In this document: positions 700 to 9,539 of the stretch, one piece after another | How positions within the stretch are numbered: position 1 is the stretch's first letter | Layout: the number at the start of each line of letters is the position of its first letter | Source: Acidobacteriota bacterium | GTDB taxonomy: Bacteria; Acidobacteriota; Thermoanaerobaculia; Multivoradales; JAHEKO01 | NCBI GenBank assembly: GCA_024638355.1 | Contig: JAHEKO010000020.1 | Span: forward strand, 6,203 to 18,326 | DNA: 12,124 nucleotides | Direction: 5' to 3' | The notes under the pieces: generated by a model | Seen by the model: the letters and a program-made list of their open reading frames with translations, nothing else | Database searches by the model: none | Told to the model about the DNA's origin: nothing | Position numbers and translations under genes: made by a program

Positions 700-1041
700 A
701 TGAACCGCGCAGACGACGAGGTCGAGCGAGTTGTCGAGCAGTTCGCGGTGCTGAAGCGCCGCTTCTCGATCGCCATCGTCCTCCTCTGCCTTGTGCTGCT
801 GGCCTGGATAGTCGTCGCCGCGGCCTTCAGCGGTCGAGATGGCGTCAGCTTGCTCGGCCTCCCGTTGGCTTGGGCGATCGAGGGTGGCCTGGTTCTGGCG
901 GCCTTGATTGGCACAGCCCTCGCGCTCAGCTTCTGGCGTTGCCCGGCATGCGGCAAGTACATGGGCGGCGTCCTGTCCATGAGTCATTGCCCACGCTGTG
1001 GCGTTCGGCTCACGGACGAGCACCGGCTCACTCGGCCGTGA
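700..1041 (+). CDS. Two-TM membrane protein with C-terminal zinc ribbon
   Basis: A 113-residue protein of unknown function. A short acidic cytoplasmic-type N-terminus (residues 1-20) is followed by two hydrophobic segments at about 22-43 and 53-79. Directly after the second comes a zinc-ribbon with C81-x2-C84 and C97-x2-C100. The four cysteines and their spacing are typical of small structural zinc ribbons, which here would sit at the membrane face. The frame is also open from a GTG at 649, but the ATG at 700 has a good Shine-Dalgarno (GGAGG, 691-695, 4-base spacer) and gives the more natural protein, so I use it. Its stop codon overlaps the 3' end of the convergent PRXL2-SDR gene by 14 bases. 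No neighbour suggests a function. Confidence 0.75.
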   Translation: MNRADDEVERVVEQFAVLKRRFSIAIVLLCLVLLAWIVVAAAFSGRDGVSLLGLPLAWAIEGGLVLAALIGTALALSFWRCPACGKYMGGVLSMSHCPRCGVRLTDEHRLTRP

Positions 1042-2551
1042 GCCGCTCGCACATCTGCCACAGCGCCCGACGATCCGCTTCCCTCTCGCGCGTAAACGGC
1101 AGATAGTGCTTGCAGCGCGCCTCGCGGTCGAGAAAGAAGGAGGCGGTTCGGCGGCGACCGGCGCGGCTGGCGGCCAGCCAGACAATCGTGTCGGCGCCCT
1201 CGGCGGGCGTCCGTAGGATGGGACGCGTGAGCTTGTGGAAGCCCGGAATCGACGTCTCGACGCCGGGCGTGTCGGCCCACCCCGGGTGCATGGAGTTGAC
1301 CACCACGCCCCGCTCGCCCAGCTCCTCGGCCCAGAGATCCGCCAGCACCACCTGGGCGCGCTTGGTCTCGGCGTAGGCGGCGACGCCGTCGTATTCGCGG
1401 TCGCGCCACTGGGGATCCTCGAGCTCGAGGCTCTTCGCATACATGCCACCCGAGGAGACCCAGACCACTCGCGCGTCGGCCGAGCGCGCCAGCCGGGGGG
1501 CGAGGAGCCGGGTCATCAGATGGGGCCCCGCGACGTGGACGGCGAAGGTGAGCTCCAGGCCGTCGGGGGTCTCGACGCGCCCGGCCGGGAGCAGACCCGC
1601 GTTGTGAACCAGAACGTCCGCCCTCGAGTCCGCCAACTCGGCCGCCGCGCGTCGAACCGAGTCGAAGCTCGCGAGATCGACCTTGGCGACCTCGACACGC
1701 GGACTGCCGGTGCGCCGGCGGATCTCTTCCGCCGCCTCCTCACCGCGCTCGAGGCTGCGGCAGAGCATCACGACCTCGGCTCCCAGATCGGCCAACGCCA
1801 GCGCGGTCTCGAACCCCAGTCCCGAGTTGGCGCCGGTCACCAGGCAGCGCCGGCCGGCGAGATCGACATCGAGATCGCGAGGGTCGAAGCGGAGGGAGTG
1901 GAGCTGGAATCCCGGCCGGCTGAACGACAGCACGATCGTGGGGTCGGCGAAGAGGCTCAGCGTCCTGCCGATGCCCGCGGCCAGGAAGCCCGGCGCCGCC
2001 TCGCCCTCCGCGAGCGCCGGCGCGGACTCGGAGAGCGCCGCCAGGACGTCGTCGACCCGTGGGTGGTCGCCGGCCTCTCGACTGACGTGGCGAAACGTGA
2101 GCTGGCCCTCGGGCCGAATCACGAACACGCCGCCGAGCTGCCAGGGATCTCCCTGGATCGCTTTCTGGCGATGACCGTCGAGGAGGGCGCGCGCCGCGTT
2201 CAGCGGCAGCCGGGGCGACAGCGCCGCGGCCCGACCCCGCCGCAAGCCGGCGGCGCGGTACGAGACGAGATCGGGGTCGGTGAGGAGCCGGCCGTCGAAT
2301 TCGAGCTCGTCGGCGAAGGCGGCGGCGAACTGCGGAGCGCCGTTGCCGATGACGGCCACCTCCGCGCCCCGGTCGCGGATGTCTTCGATCCGGTCGCGCA
2401 ACTGCGCAACCTGCTCACGACAGAACATTCACCCGAAGTGGCGGACGAAGGCCAGCACCACGGGTCGCTCGGCCCACAGCGAGCCCAGCCGCACGGGGCG
2501 GTCCTGCGTGTCGGACAGCGTGATGCCGGACAGCCGGGTGGCGATTCTCAT
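1028..2551 (-). CDS. Candidate selenoprotein: PRXL2/AhpC-TSA-like domain fused to a DHRS12-like short-chain dehydrogenase (in-frame TGA read as Sec)
   Basis: Reading the TGA at 2431-2429 as selenocysteine gives one 507-residue protein. Residues 1-40 (starting M-R-I-A-T-R-L-S-G) lead through strand R-P-V-V-L-A-F-V-R-H-F-G to U41-M-F-C44, then R-E-Q-V-A-Q-L-R-D: the thioredoxin-fold peroxiredoxin-like 2 core, with its CxxC changed to UxxC. This domain runs to about residue 175. Residues ~205-507 are a short-chain dehydrogenase of the DHRS12-like type: cofactor motif TGANSGLG at 239-246, NAG at 317-319, active-site Ser at 366/367, Tyr393 and Lys397 in YAETK. The SDR is therefore expected to be catalytic and to use NAD(P)(H). 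Start: ATG at 2551, the only in-frame start just before the domain; no clear Shine-Dalgarno is visible. Conventional gene calling would begin at the ATG at 2428 and omit the redox site. Domain calls are confident; Sec incorporation is inferred from the position of the TGA and a SECIS-like hairpin. A nonsense mutation or sequencing error is the alternative. Confidence 0.85.
2392..2411 (-). promoter_or_regulatory. SECIS-like stem-loop downstream of the in-frame TGA
   Basis: Read on the minus strand as RNA, GGUUGCGC pairs with GCGCGACC through 8 continuous pairs (7 Watson-Crick and one U-G), closing a 4-base loop, AGUU. The loop begins 25 bases after the UGA. The published bacterial SECIS pattern requires a short apical loop about 16-37 bases after UGA with a G among its first two loop bases; both are met. 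It would recruit the elongation factor SelB. GC-rich coding DNA makes hairpins easily, so it is supportive and not proof by itself. Confidence 0.6.
2429..2431 (-). other. In-frame TGA, predicted selenocysteine codon (Sec41)
   Basis: The codon sits between GGG (Gly40) and ATG (Met42), in the context H-F-G-[TGA]-M-F-C. In PRXL2-type proteins this position is normally the first Cys of the CxxC redox motif. Codons on both sides belong to the same frame and same conserved domain, so this is a codon substitution and not a frameshift. TGA at a catalytic Cys position is the classic signature of a selenoprotein. Confidence 0.8.
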
Positions 2552-2661: not shown

Positions 2662-3852
2662 CTACTCGGGGTCTTCCGGGAGATGGAGCACTCCGACCTT
2701 CTTGCGCTGCGACCTGCGTCGCTCGGGCACCATCGACCGCATGGAGTCGAGCTTGCCGTAGCACAGCAGCTTGTCGCCCGCCTCGAGGACCCGCGTGCCC
2801 TTCGGATTGGAGATCACGGAGGTGCCGCGGTGGAGATTGAGCACCACGATGTCCTTGTCTCGCAGCCCCGACTCCTGGATGGTCTTGCCCTCGAGCACCG
2901 CGCCCTCCGGAATCATCAGGTCCGCGACGCCGTAGCCTACCGAGACGGTGAGTCGCTGCCGAACGTCGAGCTCGGGGAAGGCGACCTGGTTGCTGATGTG
3001 ATCGATCACCGCGCCCGCCACGTCGAGCTGCGTCGCGCCTTCGATGCCTTCGAGCCCGGGCGAGGAGTTGACTTCCATGATCTGCGGGCCGCTCGACGAC
3101 TCGAGCATGTCCACTCCGGCCACTCGCAAACCCATGATCTGCGCCGCTCGAATCGCCGTCTCTTCGAAATTGGAGTCGAGCGTGATGGGCTCGGCCTTGC
3201 CGCCGCGATGCACGTTGCTGCGAAACTCGTCGCCCTGGGCGACACGCCGCATCGCCGCCACCACCCGGTCACCGACGACGAACGCGCGGATGTCCCGCCC
3301 CTTGCTCTCCTTCACAAAGGCCTGGATCAGCACGTTCTGCTTCGTGCTCTGCAAGGTCTCGATGATCGCCTCGGCGACCTTCGTGGTGTCGGCCAAGATG
3401 ACCCCGACGCCCTGGGTGCCCTCGAGGATCTTGATGATCACCGGCGCTCCGCCGAGCCGTTCGATCGCGGGCAGAACGTCCTTTCGGTCGCGAACGAATG
3501 CAGTCTGGGGGATGCCGATGTCATGCCGGCTGAGGATCTGGAGCGAGCGCAGCTTGTCGCGCGAGTTGGAGATGCCGTTGGCGGTGTTCGGCGTGTACAC
3601 GTCCATCTGCTCGAACTGACGGACGACGGCGGTACCGAAGTACGTCACCGAGGCCCCGATGCGGGGCAGCACCGCGTCGTAGGCGCTGAGCATCTTCGAC
3701 CGAAAGTGCAGCTTCGGGTCGCCATGGCTCAGCTCGATCGCGAAACGGAGCGTGTTCAGGACCTTGACGTCGTGCCCGCGCTCGAGCGCAGCCTGCTTGA
3801 GGCGGCCGGTGCTGTAGGCATTGGGTGCGGTAGACAGGATCGCGAGTTTCAT
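2662..3852 (-). CDS. rimK: RimK-family ATP-grasp glutamate ligase with C-terminal RCK_C (TrkA_C) domain
   Basis: A 396-residue protein. Residues 1-290 closely follow E. coli RimK, which adds glutamates to the C-terminus of ribosomal protein S6. Matching segments include M-K-L-A-I-L-S, the P-R-I-G-A-S-V-T-Y-F-G-T-A run at 63-75, the nucleotide-binding K141 with E-G-T-Q-G-V-G-V, the F-R-S-N-V-H-R-G-G loop at 210-218, and the metal-binding M-E-V-N-S-S-P-G-L-E-G-I-E with E260 and N262. E. coli RimK ends at about 300 residues; here a further domain at about 305-372 matches RCK_C/TrkA_C (L-E-G-K-T-I-Q-E-S-G-L-R, then V-L-E-A-G-D-K-L-L-C-Y-G). A basic tail follows. RCK_C domains usually bind small ligands in K+ transport systems, so ligand control of the ligase is plausible but inferred. 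The ATG start has a strong Shine-Dalgarno (GAGGAG, 5-base spacer). A 101-base gap separates it from the DUF1772 gene upstream. Confidence 0.88.
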   Translation of the reverse strand: MKLAILSTAPNAYSTGRLKQAALERGHDVKVLNTLRFAIELSHGDPKLHFRSKMLSAYDAVLPRIGASVTYFGTAVVRQFEQMDVYTPNTANGISNSRDKLRSLQILSRHDIGIPQTAFVRDRKDVLPAIERLGGAPVIIKILEGTQGVGVILADTTKVAEAIIETLQSTKQNVLIQAFVKESKGRDIRAFVVGDRVVAAMRRVAQGDEFRSNVHRGGKAEPITLDSNFEETAIRAAQIMGLRVAGVDMLESSSGPQIMEVNSSPGLEGIEGATQLDVAGAVIDHISNQVAFPELDVRQRLTVSVGYGVADLMIPEGAVLEGKTIQESGLRDKDIVVLNLHRGTSVISNPKGTRVLEAGDKLLCYGKLDSMRSMVPERRRSQRKKVGVLHLPEDPE

Positions 3853-5548: not shown

Positions 5549-6523
5549 GTGAACGCCCTGGTGAGCCTTCTCGAGGGACCCCGCGCCCGCGGCGCGTTCG
5601 CGCTTCGCTGCGTCATGAGTGCGCCGTGGTCGTTGCGCGTCCTCGCGGAGTCGCCGCTCACGCTGATCGCGGTGGTGACCGGCGAGGTCTGGATCGTCCA
5701 CGACCGCGGCGAGACCGCACGACTCGGCCCGGGCGACGTGGCCGTGACCAGCGGCTCGGATCACTACACCGTCGCGGGCGACCCGGAGACCGAGCCGGAC
5801 GTGGTGATCCACCCCGGTCAGCGATGCTGCTCGCTGGACGGCGAGTCTCTGGAGGACGAGCTGATGCTCGGTGTGCGCACCTGGGGCAACGATCCGCAAG
5901 GCTCGACGGTCTTCGTGGTCGGCGCCTACGAATCGATCGGCGACCTGAGCGATCGCCTGGTGCGTGCCCTGCCGCCGCTTCTCCGGCTCTCGAAGGAGGA
6001 GTGGGAGTCGCCCCTCTTCTCCGTGCTGTGCGACGAGGTCGTGGAAGACCGACCCGGTCAAGCGGCCGTGCTCGACCGCTTGATCGACCTGCTCCTGATG
6101 CGGGCGCTCCGCGCCTGGTTCGCGCGACCGGAAGCGAAGGAGCCGGCCTGGTATCGATCCCAGGCCGACCCCGTCGTCGGACGCGTTCTCCACATCATGC
6201 ACGAGGACCCCGCCCGCCAGTGGACGCTCTCGGATCTCGCCCGCGAGACGGGCGTGTCGCGCGCGGCGCTCGCCCGCCGCTTCCGCGAGGTCGTAGGAGA
6301 GCCGCCGATGGCGTTCCTCACCGAATGGCGCCTGGCGTTGGCGGCCGATCTTCTGTGCGAGCCGGACGCGACCGTCGGCACGGTCGCTCCCCAGGTCGGG
6401 TACAGCAGCCCCTACGCGCTCAGCACGGCGTTCAAACGGGTGCGAGGCGTGAGCCCGCGGGAACACCGCGCTCGCGCGTCGAAAAGACCGGACGTCGCAC
6501 CAGGGCTTCCCGGCTCTGTTTGA
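5549..6523 (+). CDS. AraC-family transcriptional regulator with cupin sensor domain
   Basis: A 324-residue protein. Residues 1-190 form an AraC-type cupin_6 sensor domain, with the family opening L-V-S-L-L-E-G-P-R-A-R-G-A-F and M-S-A-P-W-S-L-R. Residues 205-310 are the DNA-binding domain with two helix-turn-helix units: about 226-247 (L-S-D-L-A-R-E-T-G-V-S-R-A-A-L-A-R-R-F) and about 275-297 (V-G-T-V-A-P-Q-V-G-Y-S-S-P-Y-A-L-S-T-A-F), ending in the usual F-K-R-V-R-G-V-S-P-R-E-H-R. The GTG at 5549 is chosen because the conserved sensor-domain opening lies before the first in-frame ATG (Met23). It lies divergent from the NmrA-like/DUF1772 operon; regulators of this type commonly control an adjacent oxidoreductase unit, so that operon is the inferred target. 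The effector is unknown. Confidence 0.9.
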   Translation: MNALVSLLEGPRARGAFALRCVMSAPWSLRVLAESPLTLIAVVTGEVWIVHDRGETARLGPGDVAVTSGSDHYTVAGDPETEPDVVIHPGQRCCSLDGESLEDELMLGVRTWGNDPQGSTVFVVGAYESIGDLSDRLVRALPPLLRLSKEEWESPLFSVLCDEVVEDRPGQAAVLDRLIDLLLMRALRAWFARPEAKEPAWYRSQADPVVGRVLHIMHEDPARQWTLSDLARETGVSRAALARRFREVVGEPPMAFLTEWRLALAADLLCEPDATVGTVAPQVGYSSPYALSTAFKRVRGVSPREHRARASKRPDVAPGLPGSV

Positions 6524-6631
6524 CCTGTAGGCTGACCGAGGGCCGTCGGGGGCGATCGCTGCGGAGAGTATAGGCACCGTGCACTGCCATCGCAAGCAGC
6601 TCACGTCACGCGCAGAACCCCTCGCGAGGGC

Positions 6632-6844
6632 TCAGTCGGTGCCGGCAGCCCACGCCGGCTCCAGGCCCATGCGCTGCCGATTGCCCGACCCCGTCTGGTG
6701 GCGAACACTCTGGTAGTAGTGATCCGCGAGAGCTGACTCCCCCGCTTGCGCAGCGGCGCTGGCCGCGCCGAGAAGGGCGTTCAGCCGGTTCGGCGAACCC
6801 TCGAGGACAACCTGATACTGAGCGAGAGCCCCTCTAAGGAGGTC
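6632..6844 (-). pseudogene. Decayed C-terminal remnant of a TPR protein
   Basis: A 70-codon open frame with no usable start; a TAA lies immediately upstream (6847-6845). It reads G-A-L-A-Q-Y-Q-V-V-L-E-G-S-P-N-R-L-N-A-L, then L-G-A-A-S-A-A-A-Q-A-G-E-S-A-L-A-D-H-Y-Y. This fits the last tetratricopeptide repeat found at the C-terminus of many proteins (A-L-A-x-Y-x-x-V-L, then S-P-N-R-x-x-A-L-x-G-A-A-x-A-A-x-x-A-G). The remaining 25 residues do not continue the pattern well, suggesting further decay or a frameshift. It lies on the same strand as the kinase gene, 31 bases beyond its stop, so it may be what is left of a downstream gene. It fills most of the gap between the AraC gene and the kinase. 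Too short for firm proof. Confidence 0.5.
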
Positions 6845-6875
6845 TTACAGGGGTCCGCTGGCCGGCGCCATCGCT

Positions 6876-9539
6876 TCAGTCCTTCTGCGCCAGCCCTGGC
6901 ACCAGGCGCTCGAGCTCGGCCTGCCAGTCGAGAGCAACTACCAGGTGCTGGCGAATCTCGGGATTCGCAGGGCGGATCATCACGAAGCGACCGTCGGCCC
7001 CAACGTCGAAGTCGGAGTACAGGGGACCGTGCGTGTAGGGTCCCTCGAACAGCTCCTCGGTGCGACCGGGGGTGGCACGGGCCGGGTCGAACCCAACGCT
7101 CATCATCTTTGCAGCTTGGCGGTAGTAGAGCTCGCGTCCGTCGGCCGACCAGCGCGGCTCGGTGCCCCCGTCGACCGATACCCGGACCCGACCGCTACTG
7201 CCGTCCAGCCGCTGGACGTAGACCTCCTGGGAGCCCGAGTCGGTGCCGACGTAGGCGACCCACAGTCCGTCTCGCGAGACGTCGGCATGGCTCTCCCGGA
7301 AGCGCGTCCGGCGCCAGGCTCGCGGGGGACTCCCATCCTCCAGATCCAGCGACATCAGATCGCGGTCGGTCGTCGCGGTGAGCTCGACGAAGATCAGTCG
7401 TCGGCCGTCGGGCGTCACGGCTTGTGGGATCTGATCGAGTCCGGTTTCGACCAGCTGCTCCGGTGAGGCGCTGCCGTTGGCGGCCACCCGATGGACGGTG
7501 TACGTCGGCTGTTCGGCCGCATAGAAGATGTGCTGGCCGTCCGGGCTCCAGGTTGGGAAGAGCTCGTTACTCGGCTCGAGCGTAAGCCGACTGGAGACGC
7601 CTCGTTGGAGGTCGAGGATCCAGACGTCGAGATCCTCGCTCTCGACCGTGACCGCCAGGCGCTCGCCATCGGGTGACAGCCTCGGCGAGGCGAAGAGGCC
7701 GGTCTCGCCCATCACCAGCTCCTCGCGCCCCTTGCGGTCCACCCAGACCAGGTGCTCCTCGGGGTCGAGTACCGCCCCGGGGCCGTAGACCAGGGTGCCG
7801 GTCCTCGACAGCGCCAGAATCGAGTCGCCCTCGGCGAGGTCCTCGGTTACCCCTTCCAGCACCGGCTCGGGCGAGCCCTTGACAGTCAGGCTGGAGAGAT
7901 CGAAAGCGACCGCCATCATCGTCTTTCTGCGCACGAACCAGAGATGACCGCTTGGGGAGTAGCGACCAAAGGTCGCCCGCTCGACCAACACCTTGCGCTC
8001 GCCGGTTCGCAGCGACAGCGCCTCTATGCGCGTTCGTTCGCGGGGACTCGAGAAGCTGGTGAAGATCACGTGCTCGCCGTCAGGTAGGTGCTGCGGCCAG
8101 AAGTGGCCGAGCTCGCCGAGATCCTGGTCGGCAGCGGTGAGCATTTCGGGCTCGCCACCGTCCGCGGATACCCTCCATAGTCCCGAGAGGTAATCCGGAG
8201 TGAAGACGATCGTGCCGTCTGCACCCCAGCTGCCCGCTCCCCAGTTCGCATCGCAGATCACCTGGGTGGCACCACCCGAGACCGGCAGCTTGCGAAGCTT
8301 GCCTTGCTGGGTGAACGCCAGCCAGCCGCCGTCTGGCGAGAAGAAGGGAACGAGGCCCTGCTCGGTACCGGCCAAAAGCTCGACATCCAGCCGGTCGAGA
8401 TGTCGTAGGTAGATGTGATTGGCAGCAAAGGCGACGAGCTGTCCGTCGGGCGAGATGCTCACGCCGGCACCGCCAGTGCCCATATGCTCACCCTCGGGGA
8501 TAGGAATCGAGAAACGGACCCTTGGCCGCGAAGCCGGTGACGGCGCCGGGCCCTGGAGCAGCGCCAGGGTGAGCGCAACCGCCATCGCTCCCGCCACCGC
8601 CCAGGACAGGAACGGCATGCGCTTCCAGCCTGGAGCTTGCGCCTCCGACTCAGGGTCCGCCTCTTGCCAATCGTCCGGCTCGCCGCTCGCGAGCTCCTCG
8701 AGCTCGATGCGGGCGTCGGCGATGTGGTGGAGGCGCTGGCGTGCGTCTTTGCGAAGGCACCTGCGCAGCAGACGGATGAACCGATCCGGCAGCTCAGCGG
8801 GCAGCGCCCCCCAGTCGGGCTCCTTGTCGACGATCGCCGCCAAGAGATCGACCACGGTGGCCCCCTCGAAGGCACGCCTGGCCGTCAGCATCTCGTACAA
8901 CAGGCAGCCGAACGCCCAGATGTCGGCGCGTGGGTCGACGTCCTGGCCGCGGGCCTGCTCGGGGCTCATGTAGGCGGCAGTGCCGAGCAGAGCGCCGGCC
9001 TCGGTCAACTGCTGGGTGAGGGTCGGCGACCGCTCGAGCACCGACGCGCTGCTCGCGTCGCCGCCGAGCGTCGCCGGCTTGGCGAGCCCGAAATCGAGCA
9101 CCTTGACCCTGCCGTCCGGCGTCAGCTTGACGTTGGCCGGCTTGAGGTCACGGTGGACGATGCCGGCGCTGTGCGCCGCCTCCAGCGCCTTGGCGACCTG
9201 CCGAGCGACGCGCAGCACCTCGGCAAGCGGCCGCGGGCCGCCAGCGATCACCTCGGCGAGGGTCGGACCCTCGACGAGCTCGAGAATCAAGTACTGGCGA
9301 CCGTCGTCCTTCTCGAGGCCATAGATCGCCCCGACGTTGGGGTGGCTGAGCGAGGCTAGCGTCCGGGCCTCGCGCTCGAAACGCGCCATCCGTTCCGGAT
9401 CGGCCGCGAAACCGTCCGGCAGCGACTTGATCGCTACTTCCCTGTGAAGCCGCGTATCGCGAGCCCGCAGCACCACACCCATCCCTCCCGCGCCGAGCTC
9501 ACCGAGCACTTCATAGTGGGCGATCTTGCCTTGCAGCAT
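6876..9539 (-). CDS. Transmembrane Ser/Thr protein kinase with TolB/PD40-type beta-propeller
   Basis: An 887-residue protein. Residues ~8-280 are a Hanks-type kinase with all key residues: glycine loop GELGAGGMG (13-21), Lys38 in V-A-I-K, H129-R-D131-L-K-P-A-N136, D149-F-G and the activation-segment end G-T-A-A-Y-M-S-P-E (SPE 192-194). It should be active and, with HRD arginine present, controlled by activation-loop phosphorylation. A single membrane helix follows at about 308-329. The rest (about 340-887) is a beta-propeller built of roughly ten repeats with S-P-D-G or variants (W-S-P-D-G-Q-H-I-F-Y, V-S-R-D-G-L-W-V-A-Y, W-S-A-D-G-R-E-L-Y-Y), resembling TolB/PD40 blades; it probably senses a ligand or partner outside the membrane. 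The ATG at 9539 is chosen because the kinase fold starts right after it. The frame is open to 9812, but the extra 91 residues are arginine-rich and non-conserved and would span the probable promoter. No good Shine-Dalgarno. Confidence 0.92.
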   Translation of the reverse strand: MLQGKIAHYEVLGELGAGGMGVVLRARDTRLHREVAIKSLPDGFAADPERMARFEREARTLASLSHPNVGAIYGLEKDDGRQYLILELVEGPTLAEVIAGGPRPLAEVLRVARQVAKALEAAHSAGIVHRDLKPANVKLTPDGRVKVLDFGLAKPATLGGDASSASVLERSPTLTQQLTEAGALLGTAAYMSPEQARGQDVDPRADIWAFGCLLYEMLTARRAFEGATVVDLLAAIVDKEPDWGALPAELPDRFIRLLRRCLRKDARQRLHHIADARIELEELASGEPDDWQEADPESEAQAPGWKRMPFLSWAVAGAMAVALTLALLQGPAPSPASRPRVRFSIPIPEGEHMGTGGAGVSISPDGQLVAFAANHIYLRHLDRLDVELLAGTEQGLVPFFSPDGGWLAFTQQGKLRKLPVSGGATQVICDANWGAGSWGADGTIVFTPDYLSGLWRVSADGGEPEMLTAADQDLGELGHFWPQHLPDGEHVIFTSFSSPRERTRIEALSLRTGERKVLVERATFGRYSPSGHLWFVRRKTMMAVAFDLSSLTVKGSPEPVLEGVTEDLAEGDSILALSRTGTLVYGPGAVLDPEEHLVWVDRKGREELVMGETGLFASPRLSPDGERLAVTVESEDLDVWILDLQRGVSSRLTLEPSNELFPTWSPDGQHIFYAAEQPTYTVHRVAANGSASPEQLVETGLDQIPQAVTPDGRRLIFVELTATTDRDLMSLDLEDGSPPRAWRRTRFRESHADVSRDGLWVAYVGTDSGSQEVYVQRLDGSSGRVRVSVDGGTEPRWSADGRELYYRQAAKMMSVGFDPARATPGRTEELFEGPYTHGPLYSDFDVGADGRFVMIRPANPEIRQHLVVALDWQAELERLVPGLAQKD

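What the first reader, a model, noticed from the sequence alone, without database searches (positions are those of the whole stretch)
1028..2551. Probable selenoprotein: TGA replaces the first Cys of the PRXL2 CxxC motif (UxxC)
Seen: translating the minus strand from the ATG at 2551 gives 40 residues of a peroxiredoxin-like domain ending V-R-H-F-G, then TGA, then M-F-C-R-E-Q-V-A-Q-L in the same frame for 466 more residues. Known: in PRXL2/AhpC-TSA-like proteins this is the redox CxxC, and Cys-to-TGA at a catalytic site is the standard mark of a selenoprotein. Inferred: Sec41-x-x-Cys44 is the active site, giving a selenol-thiol redox centre. A routine annotation starting at 2428 would lose 41 residues, including the active site.
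Basis: partly seen in the sequence, partly recalled or inferred. Interest (0 to 1): 0.9.

Follow-up and report, generated by a model that had tools for sequence, protein, structure and literature searches.

The report
Selenoprotein redox domain fused to dehydrogenase
A bacterium of the Acidobacteriota very probably reads a stop codon as the rare amino acid selenocysteine in an enzyme that joins a peroxiredoxin-like redox domain to a dehydrogenase; the selenocysteine site is of a known kind, but I found no description of the two-part enzyme.

Summary
On the minus strand an ATG at 2551 opens a frame broken once by TGA (2431-2429) and then open for 466 residues to 1028. The TGA sits where a solved relative has a redox Cys and where most others have TGA too: all 15 SelL-like domains found in other genomes of the order, and 76 of 80 loci returned by a scan of named genomes. 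A bacterial-type SECIS hairpin follows directly and is conserved well beyond what the protein demands. The draft genome has selB and a selD with its own in-frame TGA; selA and tRNA-Sec were not found in it (82.5% complete) but occur in most relatives. The nearest named family is 'SelL-related redox protein' (NF040769); PRXL2 is a real but more distant relative. In the window's class only this genome (1 of 148) has it, so horizontal gain is likely. Sec insertion is inferred from sequence; the function of the fusion is a guess by analogy.

The parts
1028..2551 (-). SelL-SDR fusion selenoprotein gene, 507 residues with TGA read as Sec, terminal TGA at 1030-1028
   Evidence: collinear with 14 complete and 2 cut fusions, 57-67% identical
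2429..2431 (-). In-frame TGA, predicted Sec41 (first position of U-M-F-C)
   Evidence: TGA at the same column in 15 of 15 relatives and 76 of 80 loci
2420..2422 (-). Cys44 codon (TGT), presumed resolving partner of Sec41
   Evidence: invariant in all 17 rows of A3
2393..2410 (-). bacterial-type SECIS hairpin: 7-bp stem GUUGCGC/GCGCGAC, loop AGUU, stem starting 18 nt after the TGA
2027..2551 (-). SelL-related / AhpC-TSA_2 thioredoxin-fold domain (about residues 1-175)
   Evidence: NF040769 133.9 bits over cut-off 120, residues 10-172; PF13911 56.5 bits over 27; predicted structure
1031..1867 (-). SDR oxidoreductase domain (about residues 229-507): TGANSGLG, HNAG, Ser366/367, Tyr393-x-x-x-Lys397

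Best explanation
The gene encodes a selenoprotein. UGA at codon 41 is decoded as selenocysteine by SelB, which binds the hairpin just downstream (AGUU loop). Sec41 and Cys44 form the selenol-thiol pair at the start of a long helix of a thioredoxin-fold SelL-like domain: Sec attacks a peroxide or disulfide, Cys44 resolves it as a selenenylsulfide, and an outside thiol donor resets it. The same chain continues into an NADP(H)-type SDR. My commitment on the whole: a bifunctional enzyme in which the SelL domain reduces a (lipid) hydroperoxide or endoperoxide and the SDR acts on the carbonyl or alcohol product. Shown by sequence: TGA position, hairpin, domain content, SDR motifs. Inferred: Sec insertion itself, the catalytic cycle, NADP(H) preference, and coupling of the domains. 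About 0.95 for the selenoprotein, about 0.35 for the coupled function; the confidence below is for the selenoprotein fusion as a real two-domain gene product.
For: TGA at the column in 15 of 15 order relatives and 76 of 80 named-genome loci, 4 with TGC. SECIS: the Leu codon in the loop is TTG in 16 of 16 sequences against 40 of 317 other Leu codons in the same stretches (the rows are related, so no true p-value). Of 66 distinct TGA 39-mers, 66 have loop AGUU, 421 of 462 stem cells pair, and 37 have all seven pairs plus the loop GU; synonymous-codon resampling gave at most 321 cells and at most 3 such sequences in 1000 trials. selB 344 bits, over cut-off; selD 337 bits, over cut-off, with an in-frame TGA in TTGGUAAK, which fits the UxxK motif listed for SelD in PMC13188914 (passage). 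selA over cut-off in 52 of 59 and a 66-75-bit tRNA-Sec match in 54 of 59 genomes (the 54 is my count of listed rows); ARAGORN calls tRNA-SeC in two congeners and a family member. Solved Cys relative 9us9 aligns C-V-V-C on U-M-F-C; in 9usa both are Ser. Fusion in 17 further loci with both active sites kept.
Against: selA and tRNA-Sec not found in this genome, by family model and by congener sequences; the draft is 82.5% complete, and in congener G002 the two lie about 70 bases apart, so one gap could hide both, though in G001 they lie on different contigs. 3 of the 4 Cys forms also have TTG in the loop codon, so that codon alone is not proof; none of the 4 has the full stem. 29 of 66 TGA rows lack at least one of the seven pairs. 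No protein data. Little shared neighbourhood: one neighbour family (photolyase) in 3 of 17 fusion loci, not in the window. A terminator-like pattern overlaps the TGA (1 found, 0.6 expected). The shared protein database could not be queried.
Confidence: 0.9

Rival explanations
1. Ordinary stop: translation ends at codon 40, or restarts at ATG 2428 and makes a 466-residue protein without the first residue of the redox motif.
For: An ATG follows the TGA directly and standard ORF calling gives 1028..2428.
Against: Residues 1-40 look coding and align through the family; TGA is kept at this column in 76 of 80 loci while the frame stays open. A restart codon is not conserved: after the TGA, 4 of 16 sequences have ATG, 8 ATC, 3 ATT and 1 CTG.
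Confidence: 0.03
2. Sequencing or assembly error at one base (TGC/TGG read as TGA).
For: A single draft assembly in 696 contigs.
Against: The same TGA in many other assemblies and a hairpin that the 4 Cys forms lack.
Confidence: 0.01
3. Selenoprotein, but the fused SDR is functionally independent: the SelL domain is a general thiol-disulfide or peroxide reductase fed by thioredoxin, and the two domains share no substrate. (Competes with the coupling part of the best explanation only.)
For: Relatives also have the two as separate genes: on different contigs in G003, G046 and G054, and G030 has the SDR with no SelL match at E 1e-20. SDRs lack a flavin to pass electrons to a selenenylsulfide (established knowledge).
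Against: The fusion recurs in 17 further loci with the linker and both active sites kept, and in G028 the two separate genes are neighbours.
Confidence: 0.35
4. The contig is a misbinned Myxococcota fragment or chimaera, so the fusion is not in Acidobacteriota at all.
For: The fusion groups with Myxococcota/Deltaproteobacteria fusions, is unique in the class (1 of 148), and bin contamination is 4.0%. The neighbouring RimK gene has no close match in the two congeners (52% in G001, none at 1e-60 in G002), and the fusion does not stand beside RimK in G003.
Against: That RimK gene (2662-3852) is 91% identical to its counterpart in family member G003 and 73-74% to G006 and G005.
Confidence: 0.1

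Closest known systems
SelL-related redox protein (NCBIfam NF040769) / selenoprotein L
   Same: Peroxiredoxin-like domain over the NF040769 cut-off; SelL is said to occur in fish, invertebrates and marine bacteria (PMC2397514, passages read).
   Different: SelL has a diselenide bond (motif UxxU recalled); here U-x-x-C. Here an SDR is fused behind it.
PRXL2 / FAM213 / SelU group (PF13911 AhpC-TSA_2; prostamide/prostaglandin F synthase, PDB 9us9; the name PRXL2B for it is recalled)
   Same: Same domain, CxxC at the same place.
   Different: 46 bits only; Cys in the solved protein; no SDR in that chain.
Prx-like thiol:disulfide oxidoreductase selenoproteins (PF00578; UxxC, UxxU)
   Same: Peroxiredoxin-like domain and UxxC (PMC13188914 Table 1, passages read).
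   Different: No SDR fusion in the passages read; the string SDR does not occur in that paper's main text.
Prx-like selenoprotein fusions of the GOS survey (PMC2398784)
   Same: A Sec redox domain joined to another domain.
   Different: Partners named in the passages read are a PP2C-type phosphatase, a Secretin_N-like domain and unknown domains.
PRK06196/06197-like SDRs and light-dependent protochlorophyllide reductase structures
   Same: Rossmann fold and SDR motifs.
   Different: Under the curated cut-offs of the named SDR subfamilies shown; fused to a selenoprotein domain.

Membership tests
Bacterial selenoprotein | In-frame TGA at a redox site, conserved in relatives or replaced by Cys | tested here: met
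Bacterial selenoprotein | SECIS hairpin directly downstream of the TGA | tested here: met
   by sequence only, SelB binding not tested
Bacterial selenoprotein | selA, selB, selD and tRNA-Sec in the genome | tested here: inconclusive
   selB and selD found; selA and tRNA-Sec not found in the 82.5% complete draft but in most relatives
Bacterial selenoprotein | Selenium in the purified protein | not testable with these tools
   needs mass spectrometry or 75Se
SelL-related redox protein NF040769 | Score over the curated cut-off (120 bits) | tested here: met
   133.9 bits; all 17 rows of A3 match the model at E <= 1e-25, their single scores against the cut-off not shown
Selenoprotein L sensu stricto | Two Sec, UxxU (recalled) | tested here: not met
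   second position is Cys44 (TGT) here and Cys in all 17 rows of A3
PRXL2 / AhpC-TSA_2 (PF13911) | Domain over gathering score | tested here: met
   56.5 bits over 27; matched stretch is residues 50-158, after the Sec
SDR superfamily | Glycine motif, Ser, YxxxK, Rossmann fold | tested here: met
SDR superfamily | NADP(H)-dependent activity and substrate | not testable with these tools
   needs assay

The most novel reading that the evidence does not exclude
An unrecorded two-domain selenoenzyme family, SelL-SDR, centred on Myxococcota and passed to at least one Acidobacteriota lineage, in which a Sec-dependent peroxide or endoperoxide reductase and an NADPH dehydrogenase act in sequence on one substrate: a bacterial counterpart of prostaglandin-F-type synthesis or a self-contained lipid-peroxide detoxifier.
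Probability: 0.3. Interest if true: 0.68.

Novelty: new variant of a known kind. Interest (0 to 1): 0.5.

Why it matters
Gene calling that reads TGA as stop cuts off the catalytic residue, so such proteins are easily misannotated. A selenol redox centre and an SDR in one chain give a lead to the substrate of SelL/PRXL2-type proteins, whose bacterial role I understand to be open, and the near-invariant hairpin is a good test case for SelB recognition in Acidobacteriota and Myxococcota.

Tried and rejected
Rfam over the window: no match at gathering scores. Weak tRNA-Sec matches in the own genome overlap ordinary tRNAs (Gln, His, Arg, Trp). Of 650 candidates there 150 were scored, so alone is no full exclusion; a congener tRNA-Sec as DNA gave only 14-30-base matches, best E 0.19. 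The 412-aa frame beside selB is not selA (read; its C-terminal part looks like a GatB/YqeY-type protein by eye). Neighbourhoods of the fusions, by a rough gene caller of my own: one neighbour family recurs, in 3 of 17 loci (L082, L137, L140); the two of these scanned are photolyases; single cases of lipocalin and acyltransferase. I draw no function from this. Invariant Cys264 of the SDR lies in a CR motif that many NADP-type SDRs have (recalled), so I do not take it as a redox partner. Structure search of the model is filled by the SDR half (spans 224-486); the SelL half was not searched alone by fold, so no fold match can be claimed or excluded for it. Fusions are not one clade in my trees: 5 single-domain rows sit in the 23-row SelL set, and of these L113 and L131 end at the edge of the stretch and may be cut fusions; in the SDR tree only 14% of bootstrap trees had the fusions on one side of a branch.

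Literature: no SelL-SDR or selenoprotein-SDR fusion seen in searches (open-licence PMC only, listings; one returned no paper) or in passages of PMC13188914, PMC2398784, PMC12013277, PMC9312934, PMC5029168, PMC2397514. No paper was read whole; no supplements were read. 'Undescribed' means not found in these.

Full report
OBSERVATION. The minus strand has ATG at 2551, 40 sense codons, TGA at 2431-2429, then 466 sense codons to the terminal TGA at 1030-1028. The ordinary ORF listed is 1028..2428. The first 40 codons look coding by third-position G+C (0.95 in frame, 0.69 and 0.54 out of frame).

CYS RELATIVES. The solved prostamide/prostaglandin F synthase 9us9 aligns with C-V-V-C on U-M-F-C, E 4.6e-11; the companion entry 9usa has Ser at both places. 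Four named-genome loci have TGC at the site. The wider protein database was switched off.

CONSERVATION OF THE TGA. A search of 59 genomes (the own one included) with the fused protein, E up to 1e-20, gave SelL-domain hits from 15 other genomes; all 15 read RH[FY]G-U-x-F-C-RE. A scan of one genome per species (GTDB r220) for TGH-NNN-TTY-TGY-MGN-GAR-CAN-GTN-GCN-CAR-YT matched 92 stretches, of which 80 were returned: 76 have TGA and 4 have TGC. Several of the 80 are the same contigs as (equal contig lengths). The pattern fixes the protein motif, so relatives with other motifs are not counted.

SECIS. Directly after the TGA lies a hairpin, in the window GUUGCGC-AGUU-GCGCGAC. The native 75-base stretch folds better than dinucleotide shuffles only modestly (z -2.33, 6 of 200 as good). 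Across 16 sequences the stem holds with G-U replacements, one pair changed on both sides in one sequence, and one broken C-A cell; the Leu codon that supplies the loop's UU is TTG in 16 of 16 against 40 of 317 elsewhere in the same stretches. For one search I took the window and 79 of the 80 loci (one runs off its stretch) and dropped 10 duplicate 39-mers: 66 with TGA, 4 with TGC. Of the 66, all have loop AGUU, 421 of 462 stem cells pair, and 37 have all seven pairs; 29 lack one or more, chiefly the two outermost. Redrawing synonymous codons from each gene's own usage gave a mean of 294.9 paired cells (maximum 321) and at most 3 complete hairpins with loop GU in 1000 trials. Of the 4 Cys forms none has the full stem (11 of 28 cells pair), though 3 keep the loop GU. 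The rows are related, so these are not independent draws.

MACHINERY. G000 (4.27 Mb, 696 contigs, 82.5% complete, 4.0% contamination) has selB (344 bits, over cut-off) and selD (337 bits, over cut-off) whose codon 19, in TTGGUAAK, is TGA. selA was not found by model or by the congener protein, nor tRNA-Sec by model or congener DNA. Among the 59 genomes, 52 have selA over cut-off and 54 have a tRNA-Sec match of 66-75 bits, by my count of the listed rows (its own tally of 56 over cut-off includes matches of 47-55 bits that may be other long tRNAs). ARAGORN calls tRNA-SeC(tca) in G001, G002 and G003. In congener G002 selA and tRNA-Sec lie about 70 bases apart, so one assembly gap could hide both; in G001 they are on different contigs.

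THE FUSION. 17 of the 80 named-genome loci carry the same SelL-SDR fusion, all with TGA (L073, L079 and L101 are cut by the end of the stretch). Of these, 16 were aligned with the window (L079 left out as too short): 57-67% identical to it, with Sec41, Cys44, Cys264, Ser366/367, Tyr393 and Lys397 invariant; all 17 rows match NF040769. Titles: 5 Myxococcota or Myxococcales, 8 Deltaproteobacteria, 3 Proteobacteria, 1 'bacterium'. Among 148 genomes of the window's class only G000 matches over the whole length; 9 others match in the SDR part alone at E 1e-100 or better. In G028 the separate SDR and SelL genes are neighbours on one strand in the opposite order.

ORIGIN. In the SelL tree (86 rows: 77 of the 80 loci, 8 of the 15 order relatives, the window; quick method, no bootstrap) the window falls in a 23-row set (SH-aLRT 97) that holds all 18 fusions and 5 single-domain rows. 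In the SDR tree (14 stand-alone, 17 fusions) 7 stand-alone SDRs of the class form a clade (98/99) without the window, and the window lies unresolved among the fusions. The next gene, RimK-like, is 91% identical to that of family member G003 but has no close match in the two congeners, and the fusion does not stand beside it in G003. Horizontal gain from a Myxococcota-like donor is the simplest reading; misbinning is less likely but not excluded.

MECHANISM. Shown: the site, hairpin, domains and motifs. Inferred: SelB-dependent Sec insertion; Sec41 as attacking and Cys44 as resolving residue; NADP(H) use by the SDR; sequential action on a peroxide and its carbonyl product. SDRs carry no flavin, so direct electron passage from NADPH to the selenenylsulfide is unlikely on general grounds; an outside thiol donor is more likely. 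The prostamide/PGF synthase relative suggests endoperoxides or lipid hydroperoxides as substrates; this is analogy only.

NOVELTY. Sec in SelL or Prx-like UxxC sites of bacteria is known (PMC13188914, PMC2398784, PMC2397514; passages read). A SelL-SDR fusion was not found in the searches made. I rate it a new variant of a known kind.

Noticed in passing
L012 (G000:C541:2031-5957), selD on the minus strand from 2451: selD of the same draft genome carries an in-frame TGA at codon 19 (TTGGUAAK): a second predicted selenoprotein that plain gene calling would cut.
   Followed up: partly
window 2662-3852, minus strand: RimK-type ATP-grasp ligase with a C-terminal TrkA-C domain; 91% identical in a family member, absent or distant in the two congeners.
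   Followed up: partly
L071 and L094: Nearly identical Cys forms of the SelL-like gene in a Fimbriimonadaceae MAG and a Methanoregulaceae archaeon MAG, suggesting misbinning or a very recent transfer.
   Followed up: no
L045 (G028:C64:5000-17000), 5603-7092: Separate SDR and SelL genes side by side in the order opposite to the fusion, a hint of a functional link.
   Followed up: partly
L082, L137, L140 downstream of the fusion: A shared photolyase-family neighbour in three fusion loci (two confirmed by Pfam); hint of light or oxidative stress, not tested.
   Followed up: no
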